Below, piece by piece: positions 39,452-54,357 of a stretch of 59,081 bases of DNA (positions are counted from its first letter, which is position 1; each line of letters starts with the position of its first letter). Under the pieces are notes generated by a model. It worked only from the letters and a program-made list of their open reading frames with translations, made no database searches and was not told the DNA's origin. The translations under genes were made by a program, and so were the position numbers. This stretch comes from Deltaproteobacteria bacterium. GTDB lineage: Bacteria; Myxococcota_A; Polyangia; Polyangiales; Ga0077539. The DNA lies in contig JAUXYJ010000014.1 of NCBI GenBank assembly GCA_030694465.1, positions 1 through 59,081 on the forward strand, written 5' to 3'.

Positions 39452-41178
39452 CACCGCGTGTTTACTCAGTATTTTTGCACGGATTATCACTCGCGCTCTG
39501 CGCCCTTCTTGCGTGCGCTTCGATGGGCGTCGACCAAGACGGTCGCCCCCTCGGTCAAGCCCGCGCGATCGCCACTGCAGCCACTGCGGCCGCCGACGCG
39601 CAGCAAGACAGCGCGACGATCCCCGTCGGGGACTCGCCCGTGCTTGGACCCAGCAACGCCCTCGCGACGCTGGTGGTCTTCTCGGATTTTCAGTGCCCCC
39701 ACTGCGAGCGGCTCGCACGCACGATGGCCGTCGTCCATGAGCGCTACGAGACCGACGTGCGCATTGTGTTTAAGCACCTGCCGCTGTCACGTCATCGCAA
39801 CGCACAGCTCGCGGCCGAGGCCAGCATGGCCGCACACGCGCAGGGGCGATTTTGGCAGTATCACGACCTGCTCTTTGCGCAGCAAGACGCCCTCGCGCAC
39901 GACGACTTGGTTCGCTACGCCGAGCAAGCCGGGCTCGACGTCGAGCGCTTTCGCGCAGACCTGGATGGACACCGCTTTCGCGAGCGCGTGGCGCAAGACG
40001 TCGCCCTCGCGCGGCGCCTGCAAATCGACTCGACCCCGAGCACCTACGTCAACGGGACCGTCGTGCGCGGGGCCAAGCGCTTCGCACACTTTGTCCGCGT
40101 CGTAGACCGAGTCTTGGCCCACGCCCGCACCCTCACGCCCGCCGAGCAGGTCTATGCGCAAATGACCGCACAGCCGCTCGAGTCCGAGCCCGAAGACCGC
40201 CCCACGCCGCCCGAGCCCACGTTTGACCTCGACGCCGTGCACGCGATCCCCGTCGACAACGCGCCCTTTCGGGGCCCCCTCGATGCGCCCGTGACGCTGT
40301 CTGTCTTCTCGGACTTTGAGTGCAGCTATTGTGCGCGATTTGTCCCGACCCTCGAGCAGCTCTTGCGCGCACATCCCCAGGATATTCGCTTGCAGTTTCG
40401 ACATGCTCCGGGCGCGAGACACCCCCACGCGCTCGACGCCGCCGCGTTTGCCGAAGAGGCCCGCGCCCAGGGCGGAGACGCTGGGTTTTATCGCGCACAC
40501 GACCTGCTCTTTGCGCACCGTGACGCGCTCACCCGCGAAGACCTCATGCGATACGGAGCCGAACTGCGGCTCGACGCAGCGCGATTGACCAGCGCGTTTG
40601 CACAGAATTCTCACCAAGCCGCGATTGATCGAGATGTCGCCATCGCGCGTCGCTTTGACGTCGACGGGACGCCCACGATCTTTATCAACGGCCGCCGTGT
40701 CCTGGGCGCGCGCCCGCTCGAAGAGCTTGAGCAATCGGTCCAGCGCGCGATGGCTGAGGCCCAAGCGCTCATCGCACAAGGCGCCCCTCGCGCCGAGGTC
40801 TACTCGCGCGTCACCGCGCGCGGAGCCGCACAGGCCGTGTACGAGCGCGCCCCCGAAGAGATCCACGCGGCGCACTTCTTGGTGATGCACACAGGCTCAC
40901 AGCGCGCGCCCGCGGGCATCACACGCACACGCGAGGAGGCGCTGGTCCGCACGCAAGAGGCCCTGCGTGCCCTGCGGGCGGGAGCCACGTTTGAGGCCAT
41001 CGTGACCCAGTACTCGGACGAGCCCGGCGCGGGCGAACGCGCTGGAGATCTAGGCACATTTCGCCACGGCGCGATGGTCCCAGCGTTTGACGCTGCGGCC
41101 TTTCGGTTGCGCGTCGGCGAGACCAGCGGGATCGTCGAGACCCCGTTTGGGTTTCACGTGATCCGACGACTGCCGTGA
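39448..41178 (+). CDS. Lipoprotein with two DsbA-like thioredoxin domains and a C-terminal parvulin domain
   Basis: 576 residues from ATG 39448. Lipobox LALCALLAC. Domain 1, about 60-225, has the redox motif CPHC (83-86) in VVFSDFQCPHCERLA and cis-Pro DSTPSTYVNG; domain 2, about 270-430, repeats the architecture with CSYC (292-295) in SVFSDFECSYCARF and DGTPTIFINGRRV. The last 105 residues are a PpiC/parvulin-type peptidyl-prolyl isomerase (HFLVMHTGSQ, TQYSDEPGAGERAGDLGTF, VETPFGFHVIRRL). It probably acts on periplasmic or outer-membrane clients, joining disulfide chemistry with proline isomerisation. It is coupled to a CPBP protease and faces the selenoprotein gene: the stops are 6 bp apart. 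Confidence 0.9.
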   Translation: MTPRVYSVFLHGLSLALCALLACASMGVDQDGRPLGQARAIATAATAAADAQQDSATIPVGDSPVLGPSNALATLVVFSDFQCPHCERLARTMAVVHERYETDVRIVFKHLPLSRHRNAQLAAEASMAAHAQGRFWQYHDLLFAQQDALAHDDLVRYAEQAGLDVERFRADLDGHRFRERVAQDVALARRLQIDSTPSTYVNGTVVRGAKRFAHFVRVVDRVLAHARTLTPAEQVYAQMTAQPLESEPEDRPTPPEPTFDLDAVHAIPVDNAPFRGPLDAPVTLSVFSDFECSYCARFVPTLEQLLRAHPQDIRLQFRHAPGARHPHALDAAAFAEEARAQGGDAGFYRAHDLLFAHRDALTREDLMRYGAELRLDAARLTSAFAQNSHQAAIDRDVAIARRFDVDGTPTIFINGRRVLGARPLEELEQSVQRAMAEAQALIAQGAPRAEVYSRVTARGAAQAVYERAPEEIHAAHFLVMHTGSQRAPAGITRTREEALVRTQEALRALRAGATFEAIVTQYSDEPGAGERAGDLGTFRHGAMVPAFDAAAFRLRVGETSGIVETPFGFHVIRRLP

Positions 41179-41184
41179 CAAGAC

Positions 41185-41529
41185 TTACGCTGTAAGCTTG
41201 GCAAAGAGCGCCTCGTCCCATCCGCCCACAAGGGTCGAATCGATCGCGACGGTGGGAGCGCGCAGGGTCCCGCTTGTCCCAAGAAAAGCCTTGGCGATCT
41301 CGTCGTCGCTGGCCTTCTTAGGGTCAAGCTCGATGAGCTTGCTGCCCTTCTTGGCAAACGCGCGGGTAAACGTGCGCACAAGCTTGATCGTGTCTTCGCG
41401 AGAGACTGGCTCTTTGCGGACGTCTTCGAAGCGATGCTCGACCTTGCTTCGCGCGAGAAACTCTCGCACCGGGCGGCAGCCCGTTCAGGCACGGCCGTAA
41501 AACGTGATGACTTTTTGTGTCTTGCTCAT
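41185..41529 (-). CDS. ArsC/Spx-like thioredoxin-fold selenoprotein (TGA read as Sec)
   Basis: 114 residues counting one Sec. Starting at ATG 41529, 15 bp after the crtC stop, the frame reads MSKTQKVITFYGRA-Sec-TGC-RPVREFL and runs to TAA 41185. Codon 15 is TGA (41487-41485), exactly at the first redox residue of a UxxC motif (Sec15, Cys18) after the first beta-strand. The rest is family-like: RAPTVAIDSTLVGGWDEALF carries the conserved R-x-P of ArsC/Spx-type folds. A start after the TGA (GTG 41469) would give 94 residues lacking strand 1 and the active site, which would be non-functional. A SECIS-like hairpin follows the TGA. Probable role: thiol-dependent reductase, perhaps of arsenate, glutathione or thioredoxin partners. 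Alternatives: a nonsense mutation or sequencing error. The Sec machinery is not in the window. Confidence 0.82.
41451..41469 (-). promoter_or_regulatory. Candidate bacterial SECIS hairpin
   Basis: On the mRNA, GUGCGAGA (41469-41462) pairs with UCUCGCGC (41458-41451) in an 8-bp stem (one G-U pair) with a GUU triloop (41461-41459). The loop begins 24 nt after the UGA, inside the 16-37 nt range usually required, and its first base is G, as in the bacterial SECIS consensus. A smaller GGGC-UGCC-GCCC hairpin lies between it and the UGA. The fit is to a known consensus; binding to SelB is inferred. Confidence 0.7.
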
Positions 41530-41544: not shown

Positions 41545-42555
41545 TCACGTAACACGGCGTGACCTAAACGGGAGCATTCTCTGCATGCTCGGAAGCGCGA
41601 AGCGGTCGAGATCTAGGTGCTCTCCCACGGCGGGGTGGCCTGTGGGTGTCTGCGCGGCAAATCGCACATAAAATGGGCTACTCTCGACGCGCCGCACGTG
41701 CATCAGCGCGGTCTGTGCGTCCACTCGCAGGGTCTTGGGCTCTTGCAGAGTCCAGCCTCCGAGCTTGAGCTCCATCGCGCGCGGCTCGCTACGATGCGAT
41801 CCCTGCAATTGGTCACCGCGCAGGGCCAGATCGAGCACCCTTCGCTCGCCGCCGCGCAGGGCGCGATCGTAGCGAATGCGGGTCTGCGTGGGCTCGTGCG
41901 AGCGCGCCCAGTGCCAGCGCACAAACGCGGCGCCCAGGGGCTCATCGCCGTGGTTGACGTCGTGATAGCCCTCGCCCTCGAAGACCAACGACGGCGCAGA
42001 GAACACCGCACGGACACGACACCGCGGCGCCACCGGGAGCCAGCGATGTCGACCCTCTTGATCGAGGGTGTAAGGCTCGCCATCGACAAGCGCGCTGGGA
42101 CCCACGGGCGCAAATCGCACCTCGCCGCGGACCACCGAAGACAGCGAAAACAGCGGCGAAATGTCATCGAGCCGCAGCACGTACTCACCGCTCGGCTCCT
42201 TGCGCAGGGTGTTGCCGCCGATGACCAGACCGTCGCGGAGCGAGCCCTCAAAGCCCGCGTACTCCGAGAAGACCCAGCGCGACGCGAGCGGGTGCCCCTT
42301 GCGGCTGAGCGCGATGTTGACCGCGCAGTGCTCGCGCGGGAGGGGGCCCTCCCCACGCAGTGTGCGGCCAAAATACCAGGGCGAAAACACGCTACCTACG
42401 AACACGATGATCACGAGCGAGTGCTCGCCGTCGTCGCTCGTGGCGTCGAAGTACCACCACTGGTAGGCGCCCGATCGCGTGGGATCGATCACCAGCGATT
42501 CGTCCACGTCGCGGGCATGCAGGGGCATCGAAGTGATCAGTGAATCACGGTTCAT
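41545..42555 (-). CDS. crtC: Carotenoid 1,2-hydratase (CrtC family)
   Basis: 336 residues from ATG 42555. CrtC adds water across the terminal double bond of acyclic carotenoids such as neurosporene and lycopene. The N-terminal block GAYQWWYFDATSDDGEHSLVIIVFVG and the central YHDVNHGDEPLG, then FVRWHWARSHEP, are family hallmarks (shown here in parts). Together with the CrtI/CrtD-type desaturase 21 bp upstream it could convert an acyclic carotenoid to its hydroxylated, further-desaturated derivative. It is the fourth gene of a five-gene operon. Confidence 0.88.
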   Translation of the reverse strand: MNRDSLITSMPLHARDVDESLVIDPTRSGAYQWWYFDATSDDGEHSLVIIVFVGSVFSPWYFGRTLRGEGPLPREHCAVNIALSRKGHPLASRWVFSEYAGFEGSLRDGLVIGGNTLRKEPSGEYVLRLDDISPLFSLSSVVRGEVRFAPVGPSALVDGEPYTLDQEGRHRWLPVAPRCRVRAVFSAPSLVFEGEGYHDVNHGDEPLGAAFVRWHWARSHEPTQTRIRYDRALRGGERRVLDLALRGDQLQGSHRSEPRAMELKLGGWTLQEPKTLRVDAQTALMHVRRVESSPFYVRFAAQTPTGHPAVGEHLDLDRFALPSMQRMLPFRSRRVT

Positions 42556-42576: not shown

Positions 42577-44124
42577 CTATCTGAGATTTTTCAGGTCTTC
42601 GTGGATGAGTCGCGCGACGTGTTCGCCGCCGAGGGTCACCATCGGGACGCCCCCACCGGGGTGCGCGCTCCCCGTCGCGAGGTAGAGCCCACGCAGCGAG
42701 TCGACGCGCTGTTTGGGCCGGCGAAACGGCGCGGTGGCGCCGTGGGGTGCCTCGCCATAGATCGCTCCGCCCACGGACCCAAGCGCCGCAATGGTCCTGG
42801 GTGTCACCCTCGCCCGCGTCACAATCCGAGCCGAAATCCCCGGAACAATCTCTTCGAGCCGCTTGAGAATCACCGCGTCGAGCGCGCGCACCACGTCCGA
42901 GTCGTCATCCCACTGCGCGGGGCTGTCTCCGGTCGCAGGGGCATTGACCAGCACATAGAGCGAGTGACAGCCCTCGGGCGCCACGCCGGGCTCGGTCAGG
43001 CTCGGCACGTTGACGTACAACGTGGGCTCGCCAGGCGGGAGCTTGCGCGCGAAGAGATCGGTAAACTCTCGCGCATAATCCGGGCAAAAATACAGCGAAT
43101 GGTGCTTAAGCGGCGCCACATCTCCGCGCACCCCGAGCAAGAGCGCGTAGCACGACACGCTGCGCTCGCGCGCCCTGAGCGCAGGGAGGTCCAGGGCCTT
43201 GGCGGCGTGCGACAAGAAGCTCTCGACCGCGGACTGCGGGTCCACGTTGACCACCACCGCGTGCGCCCTGAGGGTCTCGTGATCGGTGCGCACAGAGACC
43301 ACACGATCTCGCTCGAATTGCACGTCACGCGCAGGAGTATCCAGCACGATGCGCACACCGCGCGCGGTGAGATTCTTGGCGAGGGCGTAGGCGATCGCGG
43401 CCATCCCGCCCCGCGGATGCTGTGCCCCGAGCGTGCACTCGACGTGCGCGATGTTGGCGTACGCCGCCGAGGTGTGCATGGGATCTCCGCCCACGTACGT
43501 CGCAAATCGCTGCACAAACGCACGCATTTCGTCGGTGCGAAAGCGCTCAACAGACAGCTCTCGCAGCGTGCCCAGGCTCTTGCCCAGGCGCACCGCCCCC
43601 ATGCCGCGCTTGAGCACACGCGCCGCAAACCCGGCGTAGCTCGTAAACGGAGCCTCGAGATAGGGCTCGCTCGCGTAGCGCCAGAGCGTCGCGGCGTGCG
43701 AGATAAACTCTCGGTACGCGCGGCCTTCGCCTGCAAAAACACGCTCAATCGCCGAGGCCGTCTCCACCGCGTCTTGCGTCACATCGAGCGTGCGTCCCCC
43801 TGAAAAGAAGTACCGCGTCTCGGGATGAATCGGCAAGAGCCCCACGTCTCGGTCAAGGTCGCCCCCCGCCGCGACAAACGCGCGACGCAGCACATCGGCC
43901 ATGGTCAAGAGCGTCGGCCCCGTGTCAAAGCGAAAGCCATCTTGCTCAAGACGCCCTGCTTTTCCGCCCACGGAGGGGCCCTGCTCGAGCACGGTCACCC
44001 TGTGCCCTTGCGCGCTCAAATGGGCCGCCGCGGACAAGCCGCCCATGCCTGCGCCGATCACCACGATGTCCAAGCGTTCACGATCTGTCACGACCGAGTG
44101 TGATGCGCTACGTGAGCCTATCAT
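42577..44124 (-). CDS. CrtI/CrtD-type carotenoid desaturase
   Basis: 515 residues from ATG 44124, which overlaps the crtB TGA in ATGA. N-terminal FAD-binding motif LDIVVIGAGMGGLSAAAHL, followed by HRVTVLEQGPSVGGKAGRLE and FDTGPTLLTM; C-terminal block GLYLATGSAHPGGGVPM and GEHVARLI. This family includes phytoene desaturase (CrtI) and hydroxyneurosporene desaturase (CrtD). The gene order crtB-this-crtC recalls the carotenoid operon of Myxococcus, where the gene between crtB and crtC is crtD, so CrtD is my preferred reading; sequence alone does not exclude CrtI. No crtE or second desaturase is present here. Confidence 0.9.
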   Translation of the reverse strand: MIGSRSASHSVVTDRERLDIVVIGAGMGGLSAAAHLSAQGHRVTVLEQGPSVGGKAGRLEQDGFRFDTGPTLLTMADVLRRAFVAAGGDLDRDVGLLPIHPETRYFFSGGRTLDVTQDAVETASAIERVFAGEGRAYREFISHAATLWRYASEPYLEAPFTSYAGFAARVLKRGMGAVRLGKSLGTLRELSVERFRTDEMRAFVQRFATYVGGDPMHTSAAYANIAHVECTLGAQHPRGGMAAIAYALAKNLTARGVRIVLDTPARDVQFERDRVVSVRTDHETLRAHAVVVNVDPQSAVESFLSHAAKALDLPALRARERSVSCYALLLGVRGDVAPLKHHSLYFCPDYAREFTDLFARKLPPGEPTLYVNVPSLTEPGVAPEGCHSLYVLVNAPATGDSPAQWDDDSDVVRALDAVILKRLEEIVPGISARIVTRARVTPRTIAALGSVGGAIYGEAPHGATAPFRRPKQRVDSLRGLYLATGSAHPGGGVPMVTLGGEHVARLIHEDLKNLR

Positions 44125-44996
44125 CGCGCCCAAACCGTTCGCGCGATCGCCGAGAGCTTGCGCTGGGTGCTCACCACCGCGCGGCCCGCGAGCAGATCAA
44201 AATCGCGCTCACGCAAGACCTCGAGGATCTCGCTGTAGCTCCCGCGCATCATCGTGGTCGCCACGCGACCTGTGCGCGACGTGATGTGCGGCACCCCTGC
44301 GTCGGCCGACACGTAGCGCGCCTCGGCCATGCGCGCCACCTCGCGGGCGATGGCCCTTAGCGCAGGCGATGCAGTGACTTCACCCAGTGATTCACGCGAG
44401 ATTTCGTATCGATCGAGCATCGTCTGCGGCAGGTACACGCGCCCCCGTTGCACATAGTCTTCGCGCACATCGCGCAAGATGTTGGTGAGCTGCATCGCGA
44501 CCCCGAGGTCCACCGCGGGCCCAAGCGCCTCGCGGTCGTCCACGCCAAACACCGTCGCCATGAGCAAGCCCACGGTCCCCGCGACGAGATAGCAATAGCG
44601 CAAGAGCTCGGCCTCATCCGCGACCTTGGTCAGCGTCACGTCCAGCGCCACACCGTCAATCAGCTCATCGAGCGGCTCGCGCGCGATGCCGTGCCGGCGC
44701 ATCGTGTCTCTCAACGCCAACAGCACCGCGTCGTCTAACGGAGCAAAGCCACACACGTCGTCAAGCTGCGCGCGCAGCGCGATCACGCGTGACTCAAGCT
44801 CTTCGCGCGGAGCCCCCTCGGCCTCGTCGATGGCGTCGTCGACACGCCGACAGAACGCATAGATCGCGTACGCACTGCGACGCCGTGTGGGATCCAGCGC
44901 GTGCGATGCCAAGTAGAAACTACGTGCGTTTTCGCGGGTGACTGTGCGACACGCCTCGTAGGCGCGGGCCATGTCCCATCGAGCTCGGATCGTCAC
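44121..44996 (-). CDS. crtB: Phytoene synthase (squalene/phytoene synthase family)
   Basis: 291 residues from GTG 44996 (overlap GTGA with the acyl-CoA dehydrogenase stop); ATG 44972 is an alternative. CrtB condenses two geranylgeranyl diphosphates to phytoene. Family features: RENARSFYLASHALDPTRR at the start, the first Asp-rich motif FCRRVDDAIDEAEG, and the second, AMQLTNILRDVREDYVQRGR, followed by VYLPQ. Both metal-binding motifs are intact. The substrate would have to come from a GGPP synthase gene located elsewhere. Confidence 0.95.
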   Translation of the reverse strand: MTIRARWDMARAYEACRTVTRENARSFYLASHALDPTRRRSAYAIYAFCRRVDDAIDEAEGAPREELESRVIALRAQLDDVCGFAPLDDAVLLALRDTMRRHGIAREPLDELIDGVALDVTLTKVADEAELLRYCYLVAGTVGLLMATVFGVDDREALGPAVDLGVAMQLTNILRDVREDYVQRGRVYLPQTMLDRYEISRESLGEVTASPALRAIAREVARMAEARYVSADAGVPHITSRTGRVATTMMRGSYSEILEVLRERDFDLLAGRAVVSTQRKLSAIARTVWAR

Positions 44997-46669
44997 GACA
45001 GGTCCATCGCCAACCGGGACGCGTCGTCAAGAGCGCTGCCCTCGCGCATCCAGTCAATGCCTCGCTGCGCATAGCGAGCGGCGGCGAGCGAAGGCCGGAG
45101 ATCTCCCTCGACAGTGAGTGACCACGACGCGTGAGAGCACAACAGCGCGAGCGACAACGAGCGTGCAAGAGTCATAGCGAGTTTGCGTCCGTGCGCTTCG
45201 ATGACGCGAAGCTCACCGCCGTTGCGCGCGAGCCAGGCGAGGGCGCGCTCACACGCACGTTGCGCGTCGAGCGCGTGCGTCTCAAGCGCGGTTTCTCTGC
45301 AATTTCGCACACAACGCGCAAACTCTTCGCGCAGGGCTTCGTGCGCTTCACTCCGCGCGAGCGCACGCAACACATCGAGCGAGAGCACGTTGGTCGTCCC
45401 CTCCCAAATGGGCAACACCTGCGCGTCTCGCAACAGCACCGGAAGCCCCGTGTCTTCGACGTAGCCCGCGCCACCGAAGCACTCCATCGCCTCGCTCGTG
45501 AGCGCGACGGCTTGCTTGCCCGTCGACAATTTGGCCAAGGGCGTGAGCAGCCGCAAGAGCTGCTCGCCGTGCCCATCGAGCGCGCCGTCGTCGTCGAGTC
45601 CCAAGAGCTCACACACCCGAAATGTCAGCGAAAATGCAGCTTCGAATTCACTCTGCATGTCCGCAAGGGTCTCGACGTGGAGGGGCTTGTCTGCCAAGCG
45701 CTCGCCAAACGCGACACGCTTGCGCGCGTAGTCTCGCGCCATCGAGAGGCTGCGACGCATGAAGGCGATCGAGCAGACCGCGTTCCAGGTGCGGGTGACG
45801 TTGAGCATGGGCGTGATGGCGCGGACGCCATCGGTAGTGCTCGAGACCAACGTCGCGGGAGTGTCTTGGAGCGACAGCTCGGCGGTCGGGACCTTGCGTG
45901 TCCCGAGCTTGTCCTTCAACCGATTGATCGAGATGTTTCTCAGGAGCCCCTGCCCATCGCGCGTCTCGACGTAGAACAGCGCCAGGCCCTTGCTGCCCTC
46001 GGGGTTGCCCTCGGGGCGCGCGAGCGTGAGCGCCATTTCGCTCGTCGTTGCGCTGGTAAACCACTTGGTCCCTGACAAGCTCCACGCGCCGCTGGGGTCT
46101 CTCCGCGCGACGGTCTCGCTGCGGCCTACGTCACTGCCGCCTGTGCGCTCGGTCATCCATTGGCCACTCGTCCACGCGAGCGTCGGATCCCGCGAGATCA
46201 ACCGCGAGACCGCGTGTGCATCAAGCGTCGCGTGCTTGTGCGAGCGCAGCGTACGGGCGGCCCCATCGGTCATCGCGAGGGGACAGGTGTACACATCGGA
46301 CGAGGGCGCGAAGAGATAAACCAGTGCGAATTGTGCGGCGCGAGAGAGCGCACCGTACGCGCGCTCATAGCCCGTCGCGACGAGCCCGTGCTCGGCCGCG
46401 AGGACCTTGGCCCGCTTCCACAGGGCGGTCACCTCGATGTGATCTACGCGGTGTCCCCACGGGTCCCACGCCGTCAACGTGGGCTCGTAGAGTCGATCGG
46501 CGCGCTGCAACGGATCGAGCTCGTCGAGCACGACGCGTGAGAGAGACGCGAGCGCGGGCTCGAGGACCTCACGTTCGGACTGCGAAAACACACGTCGAAT
46601 GTACGCACGAAGCACACGATCGCTCTCGTACGGGTCTTCGAGCGCCGGGGGATCTTGATAGAACGCCAT
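44993..46669 (-). CDS. Acyl-CoA dehydrogenase-family flavoprotein (AidB-like)
   Basis: 558 residues, longer than ordinary acyl-CoA dehydrogenases and closer to the AidB branch. Motifs: WMTERTGGSDVGRSETVA, SGTKWFTSATTSEMALTLAR, the central NVTRTWNAVCSIAFMRRSL, and the C-terminal ECFGGAGYVEDTGLPVLLRD and LPIWEGTTNVLSLD (catalytic base region). It is the first gene of the operon and is joined to crtB by a GTGA overlap, so it is probably made with the carotenoid enzymes. The connection is unexplained: it may act on an acyl or lipid substrate, or be a neighbour by chance. A dyad symmetry is found 28 bp upstream. Confidence 0.88.
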   Translation of the reverse strand: MAFYQDPPALEDPYESDRVLRAYIRRVFSQSEREVLEPALASLSRVVLDELDPLQRADRLYEPTLTAWDPWGHRVDHIEVTALWKRAKVLAAEHGLVATGYERAYGALSRAAQFALVYLFAPSSDVYTCPLAMTDGAARTLRSHKHATLDAHAVSRLISRDPTLAWTSGQWMTERTGGSDVGRSETVARRDPSGAWSLSGTKWFTSATTSEMALTLARPEGNPEGSKGLALFYVETRDGQGLLRNISINRLKDKLGTRKVPTAELSLQDTPATLVSSTTDGVRAITPMLNVTRTWNAVCSIAFMRRSLSMARDYARKRVAFGERLADKPLHVETLADMQSEFEAAFSLTFRVCELLGLDDDGALDGHGEQLLRLLTPLAKLSTGKQAVALTSEAMECFGGAGYVEDTGLPVLLRDAQVLPIWEGTTNVLSLDVLRALARSEAHEALREEFARCVRNCRETALETHALDAQRACERALAWLARNGGELRVIEAHGRKLAMTLARSLSLALLCSHASWSLTVEGDLRPSLAAARYAQRGIDWMREGSALDDASRLAMDLS

Positions 46670-46747: not shown

Positions 46748-48400
46748 TCAGGGGATCGGGCTAAACCTCACCGAGGTGTTCGACAGCGGCGCACAGTTGG
46801 TCGCGCCCGCTGTGCAGCCACCGACGGCGAGCATCCCCGTCTGATCTTCGAGCCCCACCGTCGATGCGCGCGCGCCCGTCATCGCCCCGTACACAAAATC
46901 AATGAGGTTGCTCGTCTCGGAGATCACGATCTCGTACGTCGTGTCCACGCCTGCGGGCGAGCAACAGTGGTAGGCGTTGCGCCACTCGATCACCCATCGA
47001 CGGTTGGGCGCGCTGCCCACAGTGGCCACACAGATCCCCGCTGCGTTGGTGTAGTTGTCGAAGAAGTACGGCGCGACGATCGCGTTGGGCAGAGCAGCGG
47101 CCGGAATGCTCCCACTGAGATAGTTGTCCCCCGCGCCGTTGAGCTGGAGATACCCGTTGGTGCTCACATGGGCGGGCGCTCCGGCGAGCAAATTCGTGCT
47201 CCAAAATCGCAGCGCAAAGGGCAGCGTGACTGCCGCGACGCTGTCATCTAGGCTGGGCACCAAGACCACGCGGCCGGGCTGCGCGCACGCGTCGATGTAC
47301 GTCTGCGGCGAGGGTGCGCTCGCCGCGTATCGCGAGTTGAGCGCGCTGCGACAAGTGCCCGAGACGCACGTCGTCCCCGCGCCGCACACCACGCCACAAC
47401 CACCGCAGTTTGTCGCGCTGGTCTGAAGATTCACACACGAGGTCCCGCACTGGTTTTGCCCTGCGGGACACGCCGCTTGGCAGATCCCAAGGACGCACGA
47501 GGTGCTGCCGCCCAACGGTGCGCGACAGACCGTGCCACAACCGCCGCAGTTGCTGACGTTGCTCCGCACATCAAGCTCACACCCGTTGCTCGTGTTGCCA
47601 TCGCAATTGGCAAACCCAGCCGCGCACGCAAGCGAGCACGAGCCCGCCGTACAAGTGCCCATTGAATTTGCACCACCGCACACACGACCGCACGCCCCGC
47701 AGCTCGCTACGCTTGAGTTCGTGTCGGTCTCGCAGCCGTTAGAGCGCGCCATGTCGCAGTCCGCGAAGCCTGCGTTGCACGTGAGCGAACAGGCTCCCAT
47801 CGTGCACGTCGAGGTGCCATTGGCGCCCGTGCACGCGCGGCCACAGGCCCCGCAGTTCGCGAGTGAGCTTTGGGTGTCTTGCTCGCATCCGTTGGTGCGA
47901 TTGAGGTCGCAGTCGCTAAAGCCTGGCGAGCACGTCGTGGTGCACATCCCCGAGGTGCAGAGCGTGTTGTTCGCGCATGTTCGGCCACACATTCCGCAGT
48001 GGGTCGGGTCGCTGGTGGTCGTGACGCAGCGGCCGCCGCAGCAGATATCTCCGGGCCTACACGCGCCACAGCTCGCGTCCGGAACGTCGGCGATATCCAG
48101 GGCGATCGTAACATCCGACCCATCCAGCTGCCCCACGTCCATCGCGTCCACGGTGAGGTCACCATCTCTCGCTGCGTCGCTTGCATCAAGGCTCCCCTGC
48201 GCGTCTGCGTCTTGGCCTTGGAGCACATCGCTTCCATCGCGAAGGACGACATCCTCGCGGTCTGCGCTCACGATGTCCGCGCGATCAAGCGCCTGGTCGC
48301 CACGGGCGTCTTGCGGCCGAACATCCAGCAAATTCGGATCGTAGACCGCACACGAAGCGAGACCATACGCAGCAAACACCAAGCGAAAACGAGAAGCCAT
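46748..48400 (-). CDS. Lipoprotein with repeated Cys-rich (GCE) modules
   Basis: 550 residues. Lipobox AAYGLASC, then an Asp-rich linker with little structure. From about 110 to 340 there are around six Cys-rich modules of about 35-45 residues with the pattern C-x2-G-x-ANCGACGR-x-C and GFADCD-x3-NGCE (for example SDCDLNRTNGCE, ADCDMARSNGCE, ANCDGNTSNGCE). The last 200 residues are a beta-rich globular domain (VLVPSLDDSVAAVTLPFALRF, WVIEWRNAYHCC) of unknown fold. Exported and disulfide-rich. It is the first of four consecutive lipoprotein genes on the minus strand. Confidence 0.8.
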   Translation of the reverse strand: MASRFRLVFAAYGLASCAVYDPNLLDVRPQDARGDQALDRADIVSADREDVVLRDGSDVLQGQDADAQGSLDASDAARDGDLTVDAMDVGQLDGSDVTIALDIADVPDASCGACRPGDICCGGRCVTTTSDPTHCGMCGRTCANNTLCTSGMCTTTCSPGFSDCDLNRTNGCEQDTQSSLANCGACGRACTGANGTSTCTMGACSLTCNAGFADCDMARSNGCETDTNSSVASCGACGRVCGGANSMGTCTAGSCSLACAAGFANCDGNTSNGCELDVRSNVSNCGGCGTVCRAPLGGSTSCVLGICQAACPAGQNQCGTSCVNLQTSATNCGGCGVVCGAGTTCVSGTCRSALNSRYAASAPSPQTYIDACAQPGRVVLVPSLDDSVAAVTLPFALRFWSTNLLAGAPAHVSTNGYLQLNGAGDNYLSGSIPAAALPNAIVAPYFFDNYTNAAGICVATVGSAPNRRWVIEWRNAYHCCSPAGVDTTYEIVISETSNLIDFVYGAMTGARASTVGLEDQTGMLAVGGCTAGATNCAPLSNTSVRFSPIP

Positions 48401-48453
48401 TGAACTTGAGGGTCCAGGCTCTGTTCGCTCACGTCAACCCCACCCAAGCAACC

Positions 48454-50388
48454 TCAGCCCACACCACCACAGCGCCACGTGAACGACAGCGCGCGCAATA
48501 CCGGCGTGGCCACCATGGGCATGCTCACGGGCGTAAACGTGACGGTAATGCGAGCAAATCTCCCGAGATTGATCACGCCGGCGTCACGCAGCTTCTGCGC
48601 AATGTTGATCGGTGAGGGGTCTCGCGGCGCGACACCGAGCGCGATCACCGGCGCCATCGCCAAGCCCGTGCGCGAATCCGCGAGCTGAATCGCAAAGCTC
48701 AGCGAGGTCCCCGCGGGGGTCTCCGAGCGCCAATAGAGCTCGCCGTAGGTGCCGCCCTCGCACGTCTCATAGTCCTCGCTGTAGGTCCCGGTCCCGATCA
48801 CCAAGCGACGCACTGCGCCGGTAAAATCCGTGTACGTGTAGACTTGGTTGGGACCCGTAAACGCGTCCGTGGCCGCGGTCACAGGGTTGTACCGAAGCAA
48901 GGGTGCGCCCGCCGCAGCCGACGTGACCCAGATCAGGCCCGCGCGGTCTGCGCCGATCGCGCTCGAGCCATAGCTCCGCGGGATGCTCACCACGGTCACG
49001 CGATCGCGGGGGATGAGGCCGTTGGGGACAAAGTCCGACGCGTTCCAGTGCATCAGGCGCAGGGGATTTCCGCTCATGGGGGCCCAGACGCGGCCGCTGG
49101 GGTCGACGGTGATGCCCGAGCCCACGTTGGTGCCCATGGGCATGCCCGTAGCCTCTTGCAGAGGCACACGCGTCCACGTGCTCGTCTCGGTGTCATAGCC
49201 CACCGCGTCGGTGCAGTTGGAGCCGCTCAGCCACACGCGCCGACCATCCGTCGTGATCCCGTACGTGCGCTCCCACGTGTTCGCCGCGGTGCACGTCGGC
49301 CGCATCGCCGCAGGCAACGGGATCATCGCGCCCACGGTCCCTGCGGTCACGTTCACTGGGATGAGCCCCTCGCCCAGCGCGTGCTCGTAGAGCGTGTTGT
49401 CTCGCGTGACCACCGCGCCGTAGAGACAGCGCGTCCCGGGCAACGTGCGCAACACACGCCCCGTGCGCGAATCGAGCTGCCAAATCCCTGCGTTTCCTGT
49501 AGCACCAAAGCTCGGGTCACCGCACGCCGCGACCCACGGAGAGCCGCGTGGGTCATCCATTGTTCCGTTGTCGATCGCGATCGAGCGCAAGATCGCGTTG
49601 GCAGAACCCACCGGCGCGGTCCACAGCACGCACTCGTCTTGATCAAACGGGCGCACATCCATCGGCCCTGTGCTCGTGTCAATCATCCCGTTGCCGTTGC
49701 GATCAATGCAATCGCGCGTCTCGGCAGCCATCTTGGTGACCGTGCCCTGCATCGCAAACCCGCGGTTGGCCACGTACGCGTCGCCCTGCCCATCCACCAC
49801 CACACGCGAGGGCATGTTGCAGTTGGACGCGTGACAGCACTGCCCACGACACTCGCCGCTCGCGAGACCCACACGGTAGCGCGCGATCTCGGTCCCAGTG
49901 TTGGCGTCCCACTTGGACACCGTGCTCTCGGCCACGTTGGGAATCCACAGGTAATCTGCACGTCGCGACTCAGCCCGCACGACCAACCCGCCCGAGGGTT
50001 CGTCGTAGGACACTCCGCGCTGAGCTTCTTCGCTAAACGGCCTGCCGCCCATGCCCCCCGTGCGCACCGAGTTGCACGACGTGTCGCGCGTGTGCTGGCA
50101 ACGCCCTACAACGCAGCGGTCAATCGTGCAGCCCTCGTCGTCGTTGCAATCGATGTCATCCGCGCACGGCCGCGCGGTGCTGCCGTCGCCCACAGCGCCG
50201 TCCGACTCTGTGCCTCCGTCGCCTCCCGAGGCGCCATCGCCCTGCGCGACGACGTCCGACGTCAAACCTGAATCTACATTCATGTTTGGGCCGTCTCGTC
50301 CCGCGTCTCGTGGGTTGGGCTGCTCTGGATCAGAACACCCAACGATCCCCAACAACATCACCGCCAAAGACAATCGAGGTACGCGCAT
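48454..50388 (-). CDS. Beta-propeller lipoprotein, paralogue A
   Basis: 644 residues from ATG 50388; the frame is open to 50499, but the signal (MRVPRLSLAVMLLGIVGC) starts here. Asp/Gly-rich linker, a Cys-containing segment (DCNDDEGCTIDRCVVGRCQH), then a propeller-like region with NHL/Vgb-type repeats (YLWIPNVAESTVSKWDANTG, PSRVVVDGQGDAYVANRGF, YGITTDGRRVWLSGSNC). A Cys-framed loop, DRNGNGMIDTS, fits an EF-hand calcium loop. The C-terminal 150 residues form a second domain (GTYGELYWRSETPAGTSLSF). Its last 100 residues are almost identical to those of the next gene. Function unknown; extracellular binding is likely. Confidence 0.8.
   Translation of the reverse strand: MRVPRLSLAVMLLGIVGCSDPEQPNPRDAGRDGPNMNVDSGLTSDVVAQGDGASGGDGGTESDGAVGDGSTARPCADDIDCNDDEGCTIDRCVVGRCQHTRDTSCNSVRTGGMGGRPFSEEAQRGVSYDEPSGGLVVRAESRRADYLWIPNVAESTVSKWDANTGTEIARYRVGLASGECRGQCCHASNCNMPSRVVVDGQGDAYVANRGFAMQGTVTKMAAETRDCIDRNGNGMIDTSTGPMDVRPFDQDECVLWTAPVGSANAILRSIAIDNGTMDDPRGSPWVAACGDPSFGATGNAGIWQLDSRTGRVLRTLPGTRCLYGAVVTRDNTLYEHALGEGLIPVNVTAGTVGAMIPLPAAMRPTCTAANTWERTYGITTDGRRVWLSGSNCTDAVGYDTETSTWTRVPLQEATGMPMGTNVGSGITVDPSGRVWAPMSGNPLRLMHWNASDFVPNGLIPRDRVTVVSIPRSYGSSAIGADRAGLIWVTSAAAGAPLLRYNPVTAATDAFTGPNQVYTYTDFTGAVRRLVIGTGTYSEDYETCEGGTYGELYWRSETPAGTSLSFAIQLADSRTGLAMAPVIALGVAPRDPSPINIAQKLRDAGVINLGRFARITVTFTPVSMPMVATPVLRALSFTWRCGGVG
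48602..48858. repeat. Near-identical block shared with 50623-50879
   Basis: Aligned without gaps at a constant offset of 2021 bp, this block differs from 50623-50879 at only about 11 of some 257 bases, mostly silent or third-position. The flanking parts of the two genes diverge much more. It encodes the propeller end and C-terminal domain of paralogues A and B. Confidence 0.8.
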
Positions 50389-50474
50389 GAAGAGTATTCT
50401 TGCACGACTCTCGTTCCGGTGGAGGATGGCATTTCGCAGCAGCATTCTCCACGTTTTGTCTAAGTGCCTAGACC

Positions 50475-52421
50475 TCAGCCCACGCCGCCGCAGCGCCACG
50501 TAAACGAGAGCGCGCGCAATACCGGAGTGGCCACCATCGGCGTACTCACAGGGTTGAACGTGACCGTAATGCGAGCAAATCTCCCGAGATTCGTCACTCC
50601 GGCGTCACGCAATTTTTGTGCGATGTTGATCGGTGAGGGGTCTCGCGGCGCGACACCGAGCGCGATCACCGGCGCCATGGCCAAGCCCGTGCGCGAATCC
50701 GCGAGCTGAATCGCAAAGCTCAGCGACGTCCCCGCGGGGGTCTCTGAGCGCCAATACAGCTCGCCGTACGTGCCGCCCTCGCACGTCTCGTAGTCCTCGC
50801 TGTAGGTCCCCGTGCCGATCACCAAGCGTCGCACTGCGCCGGTAAAATCCGTGTACGTGTAGACTTGGTTGGGCCCGTTGAGCGAGGTCCAGCGGTTCAT
50901 CGCGGGCTCATAGCGCAGCAGCGGAGAGGGCCGCGCGGCCGAGGCGATCCAGATGTTGCCCGCGCGGTCTGCGCCGACGGCCGTGGGCTGCTGATGTGGC
51001 ACCGTCGGAGTCAACAGGGTCGCCATGGACGACGGGATGGTCGCGTTGGGCGCAAACAGATCCGCGTTGACGTGCGCGATGCGTGTAATCCCAGTCCAAT
51101 CGGCGCTCAGAGAGATGGGAACCCACAGGCGATTGGTCGGGTCCACCGTGATCCCTAGCCCCGCGCCGCCGCCTGCAGGGATGTGCGCCGAGAGGTCCAC
51201 GCGCGACCACTGAGACGTCGCGGGATCGTAGCCGAGGATGTCACGGCACGTGCGGCCCGAGAGCCAGATGCGGCCGCGTGCGTCGGTTGTGATGCCGTAG
51301 CTCGCGCCGCAGCCACCGCGCAGCGCTGTGGGCAACGGGACAAACGCACCCACGGCACCCGAAATCGGATTGACCGGGGTAATTCCACTCGAAATCGAGT
51401 GCTCCCACACGGTCCCGTCGGGTGTGACCACGCCGCCGTAGGCGCAGCGCCCAAAGGGCACATTACGGATCACTTCGCCCGTGCGCGGGTTGAGCTGAAA
51501 CAGCCCATTGTTGCCTGCCGCGGCGGTCGTCGCGCACGAGCCCACCCACGCGGTCCCGCTCGGAAACGTCTCGTTTCCGCGGTCAATCGCGATCGAGCGC
51601 AGCACCGAGTTGGCAGCGCCCACGTTGGCGGTCCACAAGACACACTCGTCTTGGCCGTAGGGCCGCACGTCCATCGGGCCCATGCTCGTGTCAATCATGC
51701 CGTTGCCGTTGCGGTCGACGCAGTCGCGAGGATCTGCTGCAATTTTGCTGACCGTTCCCTGCATCATAAACGCGCGGTTGGCGACGTATGCGTCACCGTT
51801 GCCGTCGACCACGGTGCGCGAGGGCATGTTGCAGCCGTTCTCCCAGCAGCAGCGACCCACACACTCACCCGCCGCGAGACCCACACGATAGCGGCCTACT
51901 TCGACCGCGGTGTTCGCGTCCCACTTTGAGAGCGTGCTCTCGGCCACGTTGGGAATCCACAGGTAATCTGCACGTCGCGACTCGGCCCGCACGACCAACC
52001 CGCCCGAGGGCTCGTCGAAGGCTACGCCCCGCTGAGCCTCTTCGCTAAACGGCCTGCCGCCCATGCCCCCCGTGCGCACCGAGTTGCACGAGGTGTCCCG
52101 TGTGTACTCACACACGCCTCGCATCGTGTTGCACCGATCGATGGTGCAGCCCTCTTCGTCATCGCACATCGCGTCGGTCGTGCAGGGCCGCGCAGGTGCG
52201 CCGCCATCGGTCACACCGCCGCCGCCATCGCCGCCGCTGCCGCCCCCGTCCCCACCGTCCGAGAGCGTGCTCCCGGTGTCCCCTGCGGCGCCGTCGGAGT
52301 TTGTGACACGGCCGCCGTCGCCACCGTCGGATCCACCGTGAACAACCTCGGGATCGCTACACGACGCGCTCAACGCAAACACGAGTAAACCAAGGGATTT
52401 GCGGACATTCCAAGCAATCAT
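50475..52421 (-). CDS. Beta-propeller lipoprotein, paralogue B
   Basis: 648 residues from ATG 52421 with GGAGG upstream. Lipobox VFALSASC. A longer Gly/Asp-rich linker than in paralogue A is followed by the same Cys segment (MCDDEEGCTIDRCNTMRGVC), propeller motifs (YLWIPNVAESTLSKWDANTA, AYVANRAFMMQGTVSK), the Cys-framed DRNGNGMIDTS loop, and the C-terminal domain. The block at 50623-50879 is about 96 percent identical in DNA to that of paralogue A, while the middle of the protein is much less similar. Same strand and spacing (86 bp) suggest descent by tandem duplication. Function unknown. Confidence 0.8.
   Translation of the reverse strand: MIAWNVRKSLGLLVFALSASCSDPEVVHGGSDGGDGGRVTNSDGAAGDTGSTLSDGGDGGGSGGDGGGGVTDGGAPARPCTTDAMCDDEEGCTIDRCNTMRGVCEYTRDTSCNSVRTGGMGGRPFSEEAQRGVAFDEPSGGLVVRAESRRADYLWIPNVAESTLSKWDANTAVEVGRYRVGLAAGECVGRCCWENGCNMPSRTVVDGNGDAYVANRAFMMQGTVSKIAADPRDCVDRNGNGMIDTSMGPMDVRPYGQDECVLWTANVGAANSVLRSIAIDRGNETFPSGTAWVGSCATTAAAGNNGLFQLNPRTGEVIRNVPFGRCAYGGVVTPDGTVWEHSISSGITPVNPISGAVGAFVPLPTALRGGCGASYGITTDARGRIWLSGRTCRDILGYDPATSQWSRVDLSAHIPAGGGAGLGITVDPTNRLWVPISLSADWTGITRIAHVNADLFAPNATIPSSMATLLTPTVPHQQPTAVGADRAGNIWIASAARPSPLLRYEPAMNRWTSLNGPNQVYTYTDFTGAVRRLVIGTGTYSEDYETCEGGTYGELYWRSETPAGTSLSFAIQLADSRTGLAMAPVIALGVAPRDPSPINIAQKLRDAGVTNLGRFARITVTFNPVSTPMVATPVLRALSFTWRCGGVG
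50623..50879. repeat. Near-identical block shared with 48602-48858
   Basis: Partner of the block in paralogue A (see there). Its ends do not coincide with a gene boundary, as expected for gene conversion or selection on one domain. Confidence 0.8.
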
Positions 52422-52497
52422 GGGGCCTCCAACGACAGCACATTCAACGGACAAGACCTGGGGTCGTGCAGTGAGTCTACGCTAATTGCGCGTGAAG

Positions 52498-54357
52498 CTA
52501 GCCTGGCCCAACAGGACAGCGCCACGCGAGGGCGACGCGATGCAAGGTCGGCACCTGCAATTCGCTCGAAGCGTACATTTGCAAGGTCATTCGCGCGTAC
52601 CTCCCTGCGCGAATACTTGGACGAGCACGCAACAGCGCAGTGAGATCCACGGGAGACGCAGCGGTCGGAAGCTCAAGCGTCAGCACGTCCTGCGTCGCGT
52701 AGGAGCTACCATTTTGCGAGAACGCTAGGCGCACTGAGATCCGAGAATCTTCTGGAATTTCTGCGGTCCATTGCACTTCGGCCCACTGAGGGTTCTCGCA
52801 CCCCGCGAGCACCGTCTCGACGAGCGGCTGCCCACCGAGCAGCAAGCGACGGACCCCTCCGGTGAAATCCGAGTAGGTGTACACACGGTTCGGTCCGTCG
52901 TGGAGGGACGCCGTCCGCGCCACAGGATCCAGCCGAATCAGCGGTGTATTGAGACTTGCCGACGCGAGCCAGACCATCCCCGCGCGATCGATGCCCACGG
53001 CCGAGGGAGCGAACGGCACCGAGAGCGCAGCGCGCGGCGTGATCTGCTCCATCGCGTCCGCTGGGATAGGACCATTGGCGACAAAGCGATCGGAGTGAAA
53101 GCGCATCAGGCTCGGGGGCGTAGTGTTGATCGGAGACCAGACGACACCCGAAGAATCCGTGGTAATTCCCAGGCCCACATTAATCGTACGGCCCTGGACG
53201 GGCGATACCGCGCGGGTCCATGCGCGCATCGCCGGGTCATAGCCAACAACGTCCGCGCAGGCCGAGCCGGACAACCAAATGCGACCGCGTCTGTCAGCTG
53301 TGATCCCATACGAGTTGCCTACACAGCCCCGCAAGCGATCGGGTAAAAAGACCATCGCGCCGACCTCGCCGCTGATGGGATTCACCGGAGTAATTCCGGT
53401 GTTAATCGTGTGTTGCCAGAGGGTCCCGTCGGGCGTCACCACGCTGCCATACGCGCACGCGTCGAAGGGGACTGTACGCATCACAGACCCACGCCGCGGG
53501 TCCAACTGCACGAGCCCCGCGTTGCGTGTCCCAGCGGTCGCTCTGCACGCCCCAACCCACACAGTCCCCTGCGGAAAATCCTCGCTCCCGCGATCAATCG
53601 CAAGCGAGCGCAGCACCGCGTCGACGGGCCCCACAGGCACAGTCCACACGACGCACTCGTCGGTACCCAAGGGCAGCACGTTGTCCGCCGAGGTGCTCGT
53701 GTCGATCATCCCGTTGCCATTGCGGTCGACACACTCGGTGCGTTCGGCAGCGATTTTGCTCACGGTTCCCTGCATCGAGAAGCCGCGATTGGCGACGTAG
53801 GCGTCACCCGATCCGTCCACCACCACGCGCGAGGGCATGTTGCACCCCGTGGTGTGACAACACTGTCCGCGACACTCACCGCTCGCGAGCCCTACTCGGT
53901 ACCGCGCGATTTCGCGCTGCGTGCGAGCGTCCCATTTCGACACAGTGCTCTCGGCCACGTTGGGCACCCAGAGATAGTCGCTGTCGACGAGCGAGCGCTC
54001 CAACACCAGCCCTCCCTCGGGTGTCACCCTCGTACCGTCTGGGATCGTGTCTGGCTCAAACGGGCGCTCGGTCTCTGCGCCGCGCGCGTACTCGATGCAG
54101 CCCGGGCCGCAGCTGCACACGGTCAACACGGGACTGTGCACACACGCTCCCGAGACACACTGCGAAATCGTGCACGGATCGCTGTCTTCGCAGAGCGTCT
54201 CTCCGCACCGAAGGCGCGTGTCTTGTCGCGCGTCCACAGGGCGCCCAGCGTCCCAGTCCAGCATCTCAACCGGTAGCTCCATGGGACCACTGCACGCCGC
54301 CAGGGCCACGAGGATCCAGAGCGACACACTGAGTCGAGGAGAGAGTTGCAGCACCAT
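52498..54357 (-). CDS. Beta-propeller lipoprotein, paralogue C
   Basis: 619 residues. Lipobox WILVALAAC. It has the same architecture as A and B but has diverged: a shorter linker, a Cys segment (CEDSDPCTISQCVSGACVH), propeller repeats (YLWVPNVAESTVSKWDARTQ, PSRVVVDGSGDAYVANRGF), the conserved DRNGNGMIDTS loop, and a C-terminal domain that keeps only the outline (VYTYSDFTGGVRRLLLGG). It does not share the near-identical DNA block. Probably the oldest member of the tandem family, and furthest upstream in the run. Its start is about 100 bp from the divergent GGDEF gene. Confidence 0.8.
   Translation of the reverse strand: MVLQLSPRLSVSLWILVALAACSGPMELPVEMLDWDAGRPVDARQDTRLRCGETLCEDSDPCTISQCVSGACVHSPVLTVCSCGPGCIEYARGAETERPFEPDTIPDGTRVTPEGGLVLERSLVDSDYLWVPNVAESTVSKWDARTQREIARYRVGLASGECRGQCCHTTGCNMPSRVVVDGSGDAYVANRGFSMQGTVSKIAAERTECVDRNGNGMIDTSTSADNVLPLGTDECVVWTVPVGPVDAVLRSLAIDRGSEDFPQGTVWVGACRATAGTRNAGLVQLDPRRGSVMRTVPFDACAYGSVVTPDGTLWQHTINTGITPVNPISGEVGAMVFLPDRLRGCVGNSYGITADRRGRIWLSGSACADVVGYDPAMRAWTRAVSPVQGRTINVGLGITTDSSGVVWSPINTTPPSLMRFHSDRFVANGPIPADAMEQITPRAALSVPFAPSAVGIDRAGMVWLASASLNTPLIRLDPVARTASLHDGPNRVYTYSDFTGGVRRLLLGGQPLVETVLAGCENPQWAEVQWTAEIPEDSRISVRLAFSQNGSSYATQDVLTLELPTAASPVDLTALLRARPSIRAGRYARMTLQMYASSELQVPTLHRVALAWRCPVGPG

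What the first reader, a model, noticed from the sequence alone, without database searches (positions are those of the whole stretch)
41185..41529. Hidden selenoprotein: in-frame TGA at the UxxC active site of an ArsC/Spx-like protein
Seen: reading through TGA codon 15 (41487-41485) restores the missing N-terminal strand and gives FYGRA-U-TGC, so the TGA is at the first residue of the redox motif. Without readthrough the protein lacks its active site. The start lies 15 bp after crtC. An 8-bp stem with a G-first triloop sits 23 nt past the UGA. Known: bacterial selenoproteins of ArsC-like, glutaredoxin-like and thioredoxin-like families use UxxC and need such a hairpin. Inference: it is a genuine selenoprotein and would be missed or truncated by standard annotation.
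Basis: partly seen in the sequence, partly recalled or inferred. Interest (0 to 1): 0.88.

Follow-up and report, generated by a model that had tools for sequence, protein, structure and literature searches.

The report
Hidden ArsC-like selenoprotein beside carotenoid genes
A small redox protein gene in a genome related to myxobacteria has a stop-type TGA codon at its active site that is predicted to be read as selenocysteine: the same codon stands at the matching place in all 19 relatives found in 192 other genomes, the genome carries all four genes for making selenocysteine, and the four database copies of its closest relatives lack this part of the protein.

Summary
Frame 41529-41185 (-) reads MSKTQKVITFYGRA-TGA-TGC... 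to a 114-residue ArsC/Spx-like protein. The genome holds selA, selB, tRNA-Sec and selD, plus two other TGA-containing selenoprotein genes (SelD itself, a SelW-like protein). All 20 homologues found in 193 genomes (own included) have TGA at the homologous codon and keep 7 or 8 of 8 hairpin pairs, with compensatory changes; the one Cys form seen in the wider family lacks that hairpin. The window's hairpin alone is not rare; its conservation makes the case. Four of four outside database relatives of the close subfamily begin five codons after the TGA, so annotation loses the active site. It is not a new kind: UxxC ArsC-like selenoproteins are a named family (NF041106; listed in PMC13188914). This protein and five relatives form a well-supported separate clade; this one scores 67.2 bits against that model's cut-off of 85. 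No Cys form of the clade was found. It directly follows crtC in 3 of the 4 genomes of its family that have it, a weak hint at photo-oxidative stress. Arsenate reductase and Spx membership failed. Expression, Sec insertion and substrate are untested.

The parts
41185..41529 (-). ArsC/Spx-like selenoprotein gene, 114 residues with predicted Sec at 15 (end includes the TAA stop)
41485..41487 (-). in-frame TGA, predicted Sec codon 15 (first residue of UTGC)
   Evidence: TGA at the homologous codon in 20 of 20 homologues
41476..41478 (-). Cys18, last residue of the UxxC motif (resolving role inferred)
   Evidence: invariant in alignment A1 of 20
41451..41469 (-). bacterial SECIS-like hairpin: 8-bp stem, loop GUU (41461-41459), loop 23 nt after the UGA
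41185..41469 (-). 94-residue GTG ORF that gene callers report in place of the whole protein (no active site)
   Evidence: (P0002)
41545..42555 (-). crtC-like carotenoid 1,2-hydratase; its stop is a TGA, 15 nt upstream of the selenoprotein start
   Evidence: NF045922 E 3.3e-33 but 115 bits against a cut-off of 400; no Pfam match above cut-off, no PDB sequence match
42577..44133 (-). phytoene desaturase family gene (crtI)
   Evidence: TIGR02734 350.8 bits, above its cut-off
44121..44996 (-). squalene/phytoene synthase family gene (crtB-like by context)
   Evidence: PF00494 231.6 bits; no NCBIfam model over its cut-off, best HpnD 221 against 278.6
44993..46669 (-). acyl-CoA dehydrogenase (AidB-like) at the head of the same gene run

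Best explanation
The gene encodes a small protein, predicted to have the ArsC/Spx fold, whose in-frame TGA is very likely translated as selenocysteine, giving a UxxC active site. Shown here: the frame, the conserved TGA, the conserved and covarying hairpin, the four sel genes, and a confident fold prediction closest to Spx/YffB. Inferred: SelB carrying Sec-tRNA(Sec) would bind the hairpin just 3' of the UGA and deliver Sec at the ribosome. The selenolate of Sec15 would attack an oxidised substrate and Cys18 would resolve the Se-S intermediate, which would then be re-reduced by a thiol donor, so the protein would work as a selenol-based disulfide (or peroxide) reductase and not as an arsenate reductase or an Spx-type transcription factor. 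It is probably co-transcribed with crtC in this lineage, which would put it in the response to photo-oxidative stress; that last step is weakly supported.
For: Sec machinery: selB (317 bits, cut-off 242), tRNA-Sec with TCA anticodon, selA (508 bits), selD, which itself carries a TGA at HGAGUACK; a SelW-like gene with CVAU. TGA at the homologous codon in 20 of 20 homologues out of 193 genomes, own included. selA is found in 19 of those 20 genomes and in 49 of the other 173 (Fisher p 5.6e-9; genomes not independent). Hairpin: 20 of 20 keep 7 or 8 of 8 pairs. On 15 of them (11 distinct) 97.7% of cells pair, 3 pairs change on both sides (3 of 500 shuffles as high) and the covariation score exceeds all 500 shuffles. 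In 30 loci of the named family, 5 of them genomes already counted, 28 keep 7 or 8 pairs and the other two have a 6-bp stem. The one Cys form among 78 over-cut-off family matches in 377 genomes (G486) lacks that hairpin (5 of 8 pairs; -1.2 kcal/mol over the stretch where the Sec forms give -7.3 to -15.6). In the five codons before the TGA, pairwise among six relatives, 29 codon differences are synonymous and 9 not. TGA is an ordinary stop elsewhere in the window (23 of 35 frames of 150 residues or more picked by codon composition). Fold: mean pLDDT 89; best PDB matches Spx, YffB and ArsC-related chains, TM about 0.54-0.59.
Against: No protein, Se-75 or transcript evidence. The hairpin alone is within chance for this GC-rich coding sequence at the few-percent level. 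In one search the number of further pair types does not exceed shuffles (446 of 500 as high) and the shuffles ignore relatedness. The Cys form folds into a different stable hairpin (-14.4 kcal/mol over nt 3-42), so 'no hairpin' holds only for the SECIS place, and it is a single case. Over eight codons before the TGA the counts are even (37 synonymous, 37 not). No clear Shine-Dalgarno before the ATG by eye. G096 has a homologue with TGA but no selA found (3.6-kb contig, 6% contamination). The crt linkage is not general: G009 has the gene beside a photolyase-related gene with crtC on another contig; the stretches of the two f7 genomes show no match to the window's crt proteins; 9 of 13 family genomes have crtC without this gene.
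Confidence: 0.93

Rival explanations
1. The TGA is a true stop; the real product is the 94-residue protein from GTG 41469, and the upstream frame is leftover or a short leader.
For: This is what databases hold: 4 of 4 outside hits start there. Over the eight codons before the TGA synonymous and non-synonymous differences are equal.
Against: FYGR before the TGA is invariant in the six close relatives, with mostly synonymous changes in the last five codons (29 against 9); the codon is TGA, never TAA or TAG, in 20 of 20 homologues; the truncated protein lacks strand 1 and the redox site; Cys proteins of the wider family run across the site (6 of 14 fetched).
Confidence: 0.03
2. The TGA is decoded as Trp or Cys by near-cognate suppression or a changed code, without selenium.
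For: One fetched database entry of the wider family shows Trp at this place (P0035), which looks like a gene call with TGA read as Trp.
Against: TGA is the commonest stop in the window and ends crtC 15 nt upstream; a complete Sec system with tRNA-Sec is present; the hairpin is conserved and covaries and is absent in the one Cys form; six fetched wider-family proteins have Cys there.
Confidence: 0.02
3. Sequencing or assembly error, or a decayed gene.
For: The window is a draft contig of a 105-contig assembly.
Against: Same TGA in 20 genomes of 12 genera, and in a further public contig not among them (L047).
Confidence: 0.01
4. It is a selenoprotein acting as an arsenate reductase or as an Spx-type regulator of RNA polymerase.
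For: Fold and best PDB hits are Spx and ArsC-related; family name; many wider-family proteins carry the Pfam ArsC domain PF03960.
Against: This protein has no PF03960 match at E up to 1; Spx/MgsR model 26.4 bits against a cut-off of 75; none of the 14 neighbour proteins scanned with Pfam is an arsenic gene, though no wider search for arsenic genes was made.
Confidence: 0.1

Closest known systems
NCBIfam NF041106 ArsC_rel_Se_1, 'ArsC family (seleno)protein' (arsenate reductase-like UxxC selenoprotein in the list of PMC13188914)
   Same: UxxC site with TGA, same hairpin position, similar length, shared RAP and G-F/W-D motifs; E 1.7e-18
   Different: 67.2 bits, below the curated 85; begins FYGRxUTGCRPVREFLAR in place of WYYHRKGUTSCTRA; a separate clade with 100/100 support on a long branch
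ArsC-like / 'Arsenate reductase 2 (cd03032, UxxC)' selenoproteins of PMC1794560 and PMC2398784
   Same: Sec in an ArsC-like protein with UxxC or UxxS, deltaproteobacterial and marine sources (passages read)
Spx (1z3e, 3l78) and YffB (1rw1)
   Same: fold and CxxC-type site position
   Different: Cys not Sec (recalled for these structures); 16-19% identity; Spx model cut-off not met
Uxx-star glutaredoxin-like selenoproteins (NF041212)
   Same: glutaredoxin-like, Sec at the first active-site residue (from the family name)
   Different: 13 bits against a cut-off of 66

Membership tests
Bacterial selenoprotein gene | selA, selB, tRNA-Sec and selD in the same genome | tested here: met
Bacterial selenoprotein gene | in-frame TGA conserved, or replaced by Cys, at the redox site in homologues | tested here: met
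   TGA in 20 of 20; Cys in 6 of 14 fetched wider-family proteins
Bacterial selenoprotein gene | bSECIS model: loop 3-9 nt, stem 4-16 bp, G in the first two loop bases, 16-37 nt from UGA to loop, MFE at most -7.5 (legend in PMC13188914) | tested here: met
   loop 3 (GUU), stem 8, spacing 23, -12.3 kcal/mol over the hairpin stretch
Bacterial selenoprotein gene | Sec shown in the product | not testable with these tools
   needs Se-75 labelling or mass spectrometry
NF041106 ArsC_rel_Se_1 | score above the curated cut-off of 85 bits | tested here: not met
   67.2 bits
NF041106 ArsC_rel_Se_1 | UxxC at the N-terminal redox loop | tested here: met
Spx/MgsR regulators (TIGR01617) | score above 75.05 bits | tested here: not met
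   26.4 bits
Spx/MgsR regulators (TIGR01617) | binds the RNA polymerase alpha C-terminal domain | not testable with these tools
   -
Classical ArsC arsenate reductase (PF03960) | Pfam match | tested here: not met
   no match at E up to 1; only a sub-threshold glutaredoxin match. Many wider-family proteins do match it
Uxx-star (NF041212) | score above 66 bits | tested here: not met
   13 bits

The most novel reading that the evidence does not exclude
A selenocysteine-only subfamily of ArsC/Spx-like proteins, unseen by annotation because its database copies are cut after the Sec codon, is the last gene of a carotenoid operon and forms a selenium-dependent arm of photo-oxidative defence in these relatives of the myxobacteria.
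Probability: 0.2. Interest if true: 0.62.

Novelty: new member of a known kind. Interest (0 to 1): 0.42.

Why it matters
It adds a well-supported clade of predicted selenoproteins that scores under the curated model's cut-off and that databases store without the active site, which suggests a simple fix: a model for the FYGRxUTGC clade or a lower cut-off. The crtC linkage in three genomes makes a selenium-carotenoid link testable. Selenoproteins are not new to myxobacteria as such: PMC1794560 lists 11 in Anaeromyxobacter dehalogenans, none of them ArsC-like (passage).

Tried and rejected
Hairpin as stand-alone proof: rejected, since synonymous recoding gives an 8-pair stem there in 2.6% and equal energy in 8.6% of cases. 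Arsenate reductase and Spx membership: not met. General crt linkage: tested with crtC over the 13 family genomes; 13 of 13 have crtC, 4 of 13 have this gene, 3 of those 4 have the two side by side, so it is a lineage trait at most. A selenocysteine FdhA in the own genome: no match over the cut-off, no TGA.

Rows dropped or chosen: for the tree 5 of the 30 loci were left out as repeats of genomes already present, and 13 Cys proteins were picked by hand from the 120 listed (of 6887 found); so its 'one change' for Cys is not evidence of a single origin. For the pair count 15 of 20 sequences were given, the 5 with a longer loop being one base longer; their pairs are. TGA position was read directly in 20 loci, 30 loci (five being repeats) and L047 and L088; for the other over-cut-off matches only the tool's count of one TGA in the stretch was seen. 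The 78 over-cut-off matches were counted by eye (77 with one TGA, one without, in 77 of 377 genomes); matches below the cut-off, many without TGA, were not counted. My notebook gives 7 nt between the convergent stop codons; 6 is right.

Full report
WHAT IS THERE. On the minus strand, 15 nt after the stop of a crtC-like gene, ATG 41529 opens a frame that meets TGA at 41487-41485 (codon 15) and then runs to TAA at 41185. With the TGA read as Sec the protein is 114 residues with FYGRA-U-TGC. The only ATG/GTG/TTG in frame between the crtC stop and the TGA is that ATG; crtC ends with TGA in the same frame, so the same triplet is a stop and, as codon 15 of the next gene, a predicted Sec codon. An 8-bp stem with loop GUU has its loop 23 nt after the UGA.

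SEC SYSTEM. The genome (7.2 Mb, 105 contigs) holds selB (317 bits), selA (508 bits), selD and a tRNA-Sec of 97-98 nt with anticodon TCA. SelD itself has TGA in HGAGUACK, followed by a 6-bp stem with a GCA triloop 15 nt after it. A SelW-like gene has CVAU. The genome therefore has at least three predicted selenoprotein genes; of the two other families I looked for, formate dehydrogenase showed no TGA form and SelW-like did.

CONSERVATION OF THE CODON. P0001 was searched in 193 genomes, own included: 20 have a homologue (12 genera), and all 20 carry TGA at the homologous codon (in one, L036, it lies just upstream of the matched stretch). selA is found in 19 of these 20 and in 49 of the other 173 at E up to 0.001 (Fisher p 5.6e-9, with related genomes counted as independent); the exception, G096, is a 3.6-kb contig of an assembly with 6% contamination. 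In the phylum sample the named family NF041106 gives 78 over-cut-off matches in 77 of 377 genomes, 77 with one TGA and one without. The one without (G486) has Cys. The P0001 clade itself shows there only as matches below the cut-off.

CONSERVATION OF THE HAIRPIN. Of 20 sequences 15 pair in the triloop register (13 with 8 pairs, L026 and L033 with 7 and a wider loop) and five in a register with a four-base loop (L039 with 7 pairs); so 20 of 20 keep 7 or 8 of 8. On the 15 (11 distinct) 97.7% of cells pair, three pairs change on both sides (3 of 500 shuffles as high), and 0 of 500 shuffles reach the covariation score; the count of further pair types is not above shuffles (446 of 500), and sliding the partner by -2 still pairs 81.8%. 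In 30 loci of the named family (five already among the 20) 28 keep 7 or 8 pairs, one pair occurring as G-C, G-U, A-U and C-G, and the remaining two show a 6-bp stem; the weakest, L064, gives -7.3 kcal/mol. The Cys form lacks it (5 of 8 pairs, -1.2 kcal/mol), though it forms another hairpin over the wider stretch (-14.4 kcal/mol), and it is a single case. The window's hairpin taken alone is not rare.

WHAT PROTEIN IT IS. Best model NF041106 'ArsC family (seleno)protein', 67.2 bits, cut-off 85; Spx/MgsR 26.4 bits, cut-off 75; no PF03960 match, although many wider-family proteins carry PF03960. All 20 homologues match NF041106 at E up to 0.001. The AlphaFold model has mean pLDDT 89; Foldseek (TM about 0.54-0.59 for the leading chains) and the sequence profile both lead with Spx, YffB and ArsC-related chains. 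In a tree of 59 rows and 116 columns the six FYGRxUTGC proteins form one clade, 100/100, on a branch of 2.1 changes per column. Residues invariant in all 20: U15, C18, G84, G87, R90, A91, P92, G103.

HIDDEN FROM ANNOTATION. A search of 5.8 billion proteins with the whole protein returned the window's own truncated ORF and four others, 94-97 residues, all starting at residue 21, five codons after the TGA. With the alignment as query the wider family appears (6887 hits, 120 listed); of 14 proteins fetched from both lists, 6 have Cys at the position, 7 start after it and one has Trp there.

NEIGHBOURS. Acyl-CoA dehydrogenase, squalene/phytoene synthase, phytoene desaturase, crtC-like and this gene stand in the same order in G000, G006 and G004, with gaps of 15, 52 and 51 nt before this gene. 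G009 has the gene directly after a photolyase-related (DPRP) gene and crtC on another contig. In G018 an AMP-binding enzyme precedes it; no match to the window's crt proteins was seen in the stretches fetched from G042, G018, G182 and G106. A light or oxidative-stress link is a hint only.

ORGANISM.

MECHANISM. Shown: frame, TGA, hairpin, sel genes, fold prediction. Inferred: SelB-dependent Sec insertion, selenolate attack by Sec15 and resolution by Cys18, re-reduction by a cellular thiol. Not shown: substrate, expression.

LITERATURE. PMC1794560, PMC2398784, PMC9312934, PMC13188914, PMC12013277 and PMC5029168 were seen as passages around search terms only. PMC1794560 lists ArsC-like selenoproteins in Desulfotalea and Desulfuromonas, and 11 selenoproteins, none ArsC-like, in Anaeromyxobacter (a myxobacterium, recalled); PMC2398784 lists ArsC UxxS and UxxC; PMC13188914 lists NF041106 UxxC and gives the bSECIS constraints used here. 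Searches for selenoprotein with carotenoid biosynthesis and operon (one unrelated paper listed), with myxobacteria (none) and with ArsC family or Myxococcota (four unrelated by title) showed no report of this clade or of a selenoprotein in a carotenoid operon; the library lacks most subscription journals.

VERDICT.

Noticed in passing
window 39457-41178 (+): ORF with two DsbA/Thioredoxin_4 domains followed by a PpiC-type rotamase domain in one chain, convergent with the selenoprotein gene, 6 nt between the stop codons.
   Followed up: partly
window 46748-54357 (-): Four consecutive large genes with lipoprotein-like starts (by eye); three of them (48454-50499, 50475-52454, 52498-54357) match one and the same stretch in G006 and in G004, so the window seems to have a local expansion.
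   Followed up: no
P0035 (database protein): A wider-family entry with Trp at the Sec position, as if TGA had been translated as Trp by the gene caller.
   Followed up: no
G000:C22:130735-130938 (L100): SelW-like gene with an in-frame TGA (YCVAU), over the curated cut-off.
   Followed up: partly
L085 (G486:C28:296300-296900): The only match without TGA among 78 over-cut-off NF041106 matches in 377 genomes; it has Cys and lacks the hairpin at the SECIS place (another hairpin forms): a natural Sec-to-Cys or never-Sec control.
   Followed up: partly
L048 8039-9757: In G009 the gene next to the selenoprotein is a photolyase-related (DPRP) gene in place of crtC.
   Followed up: partly
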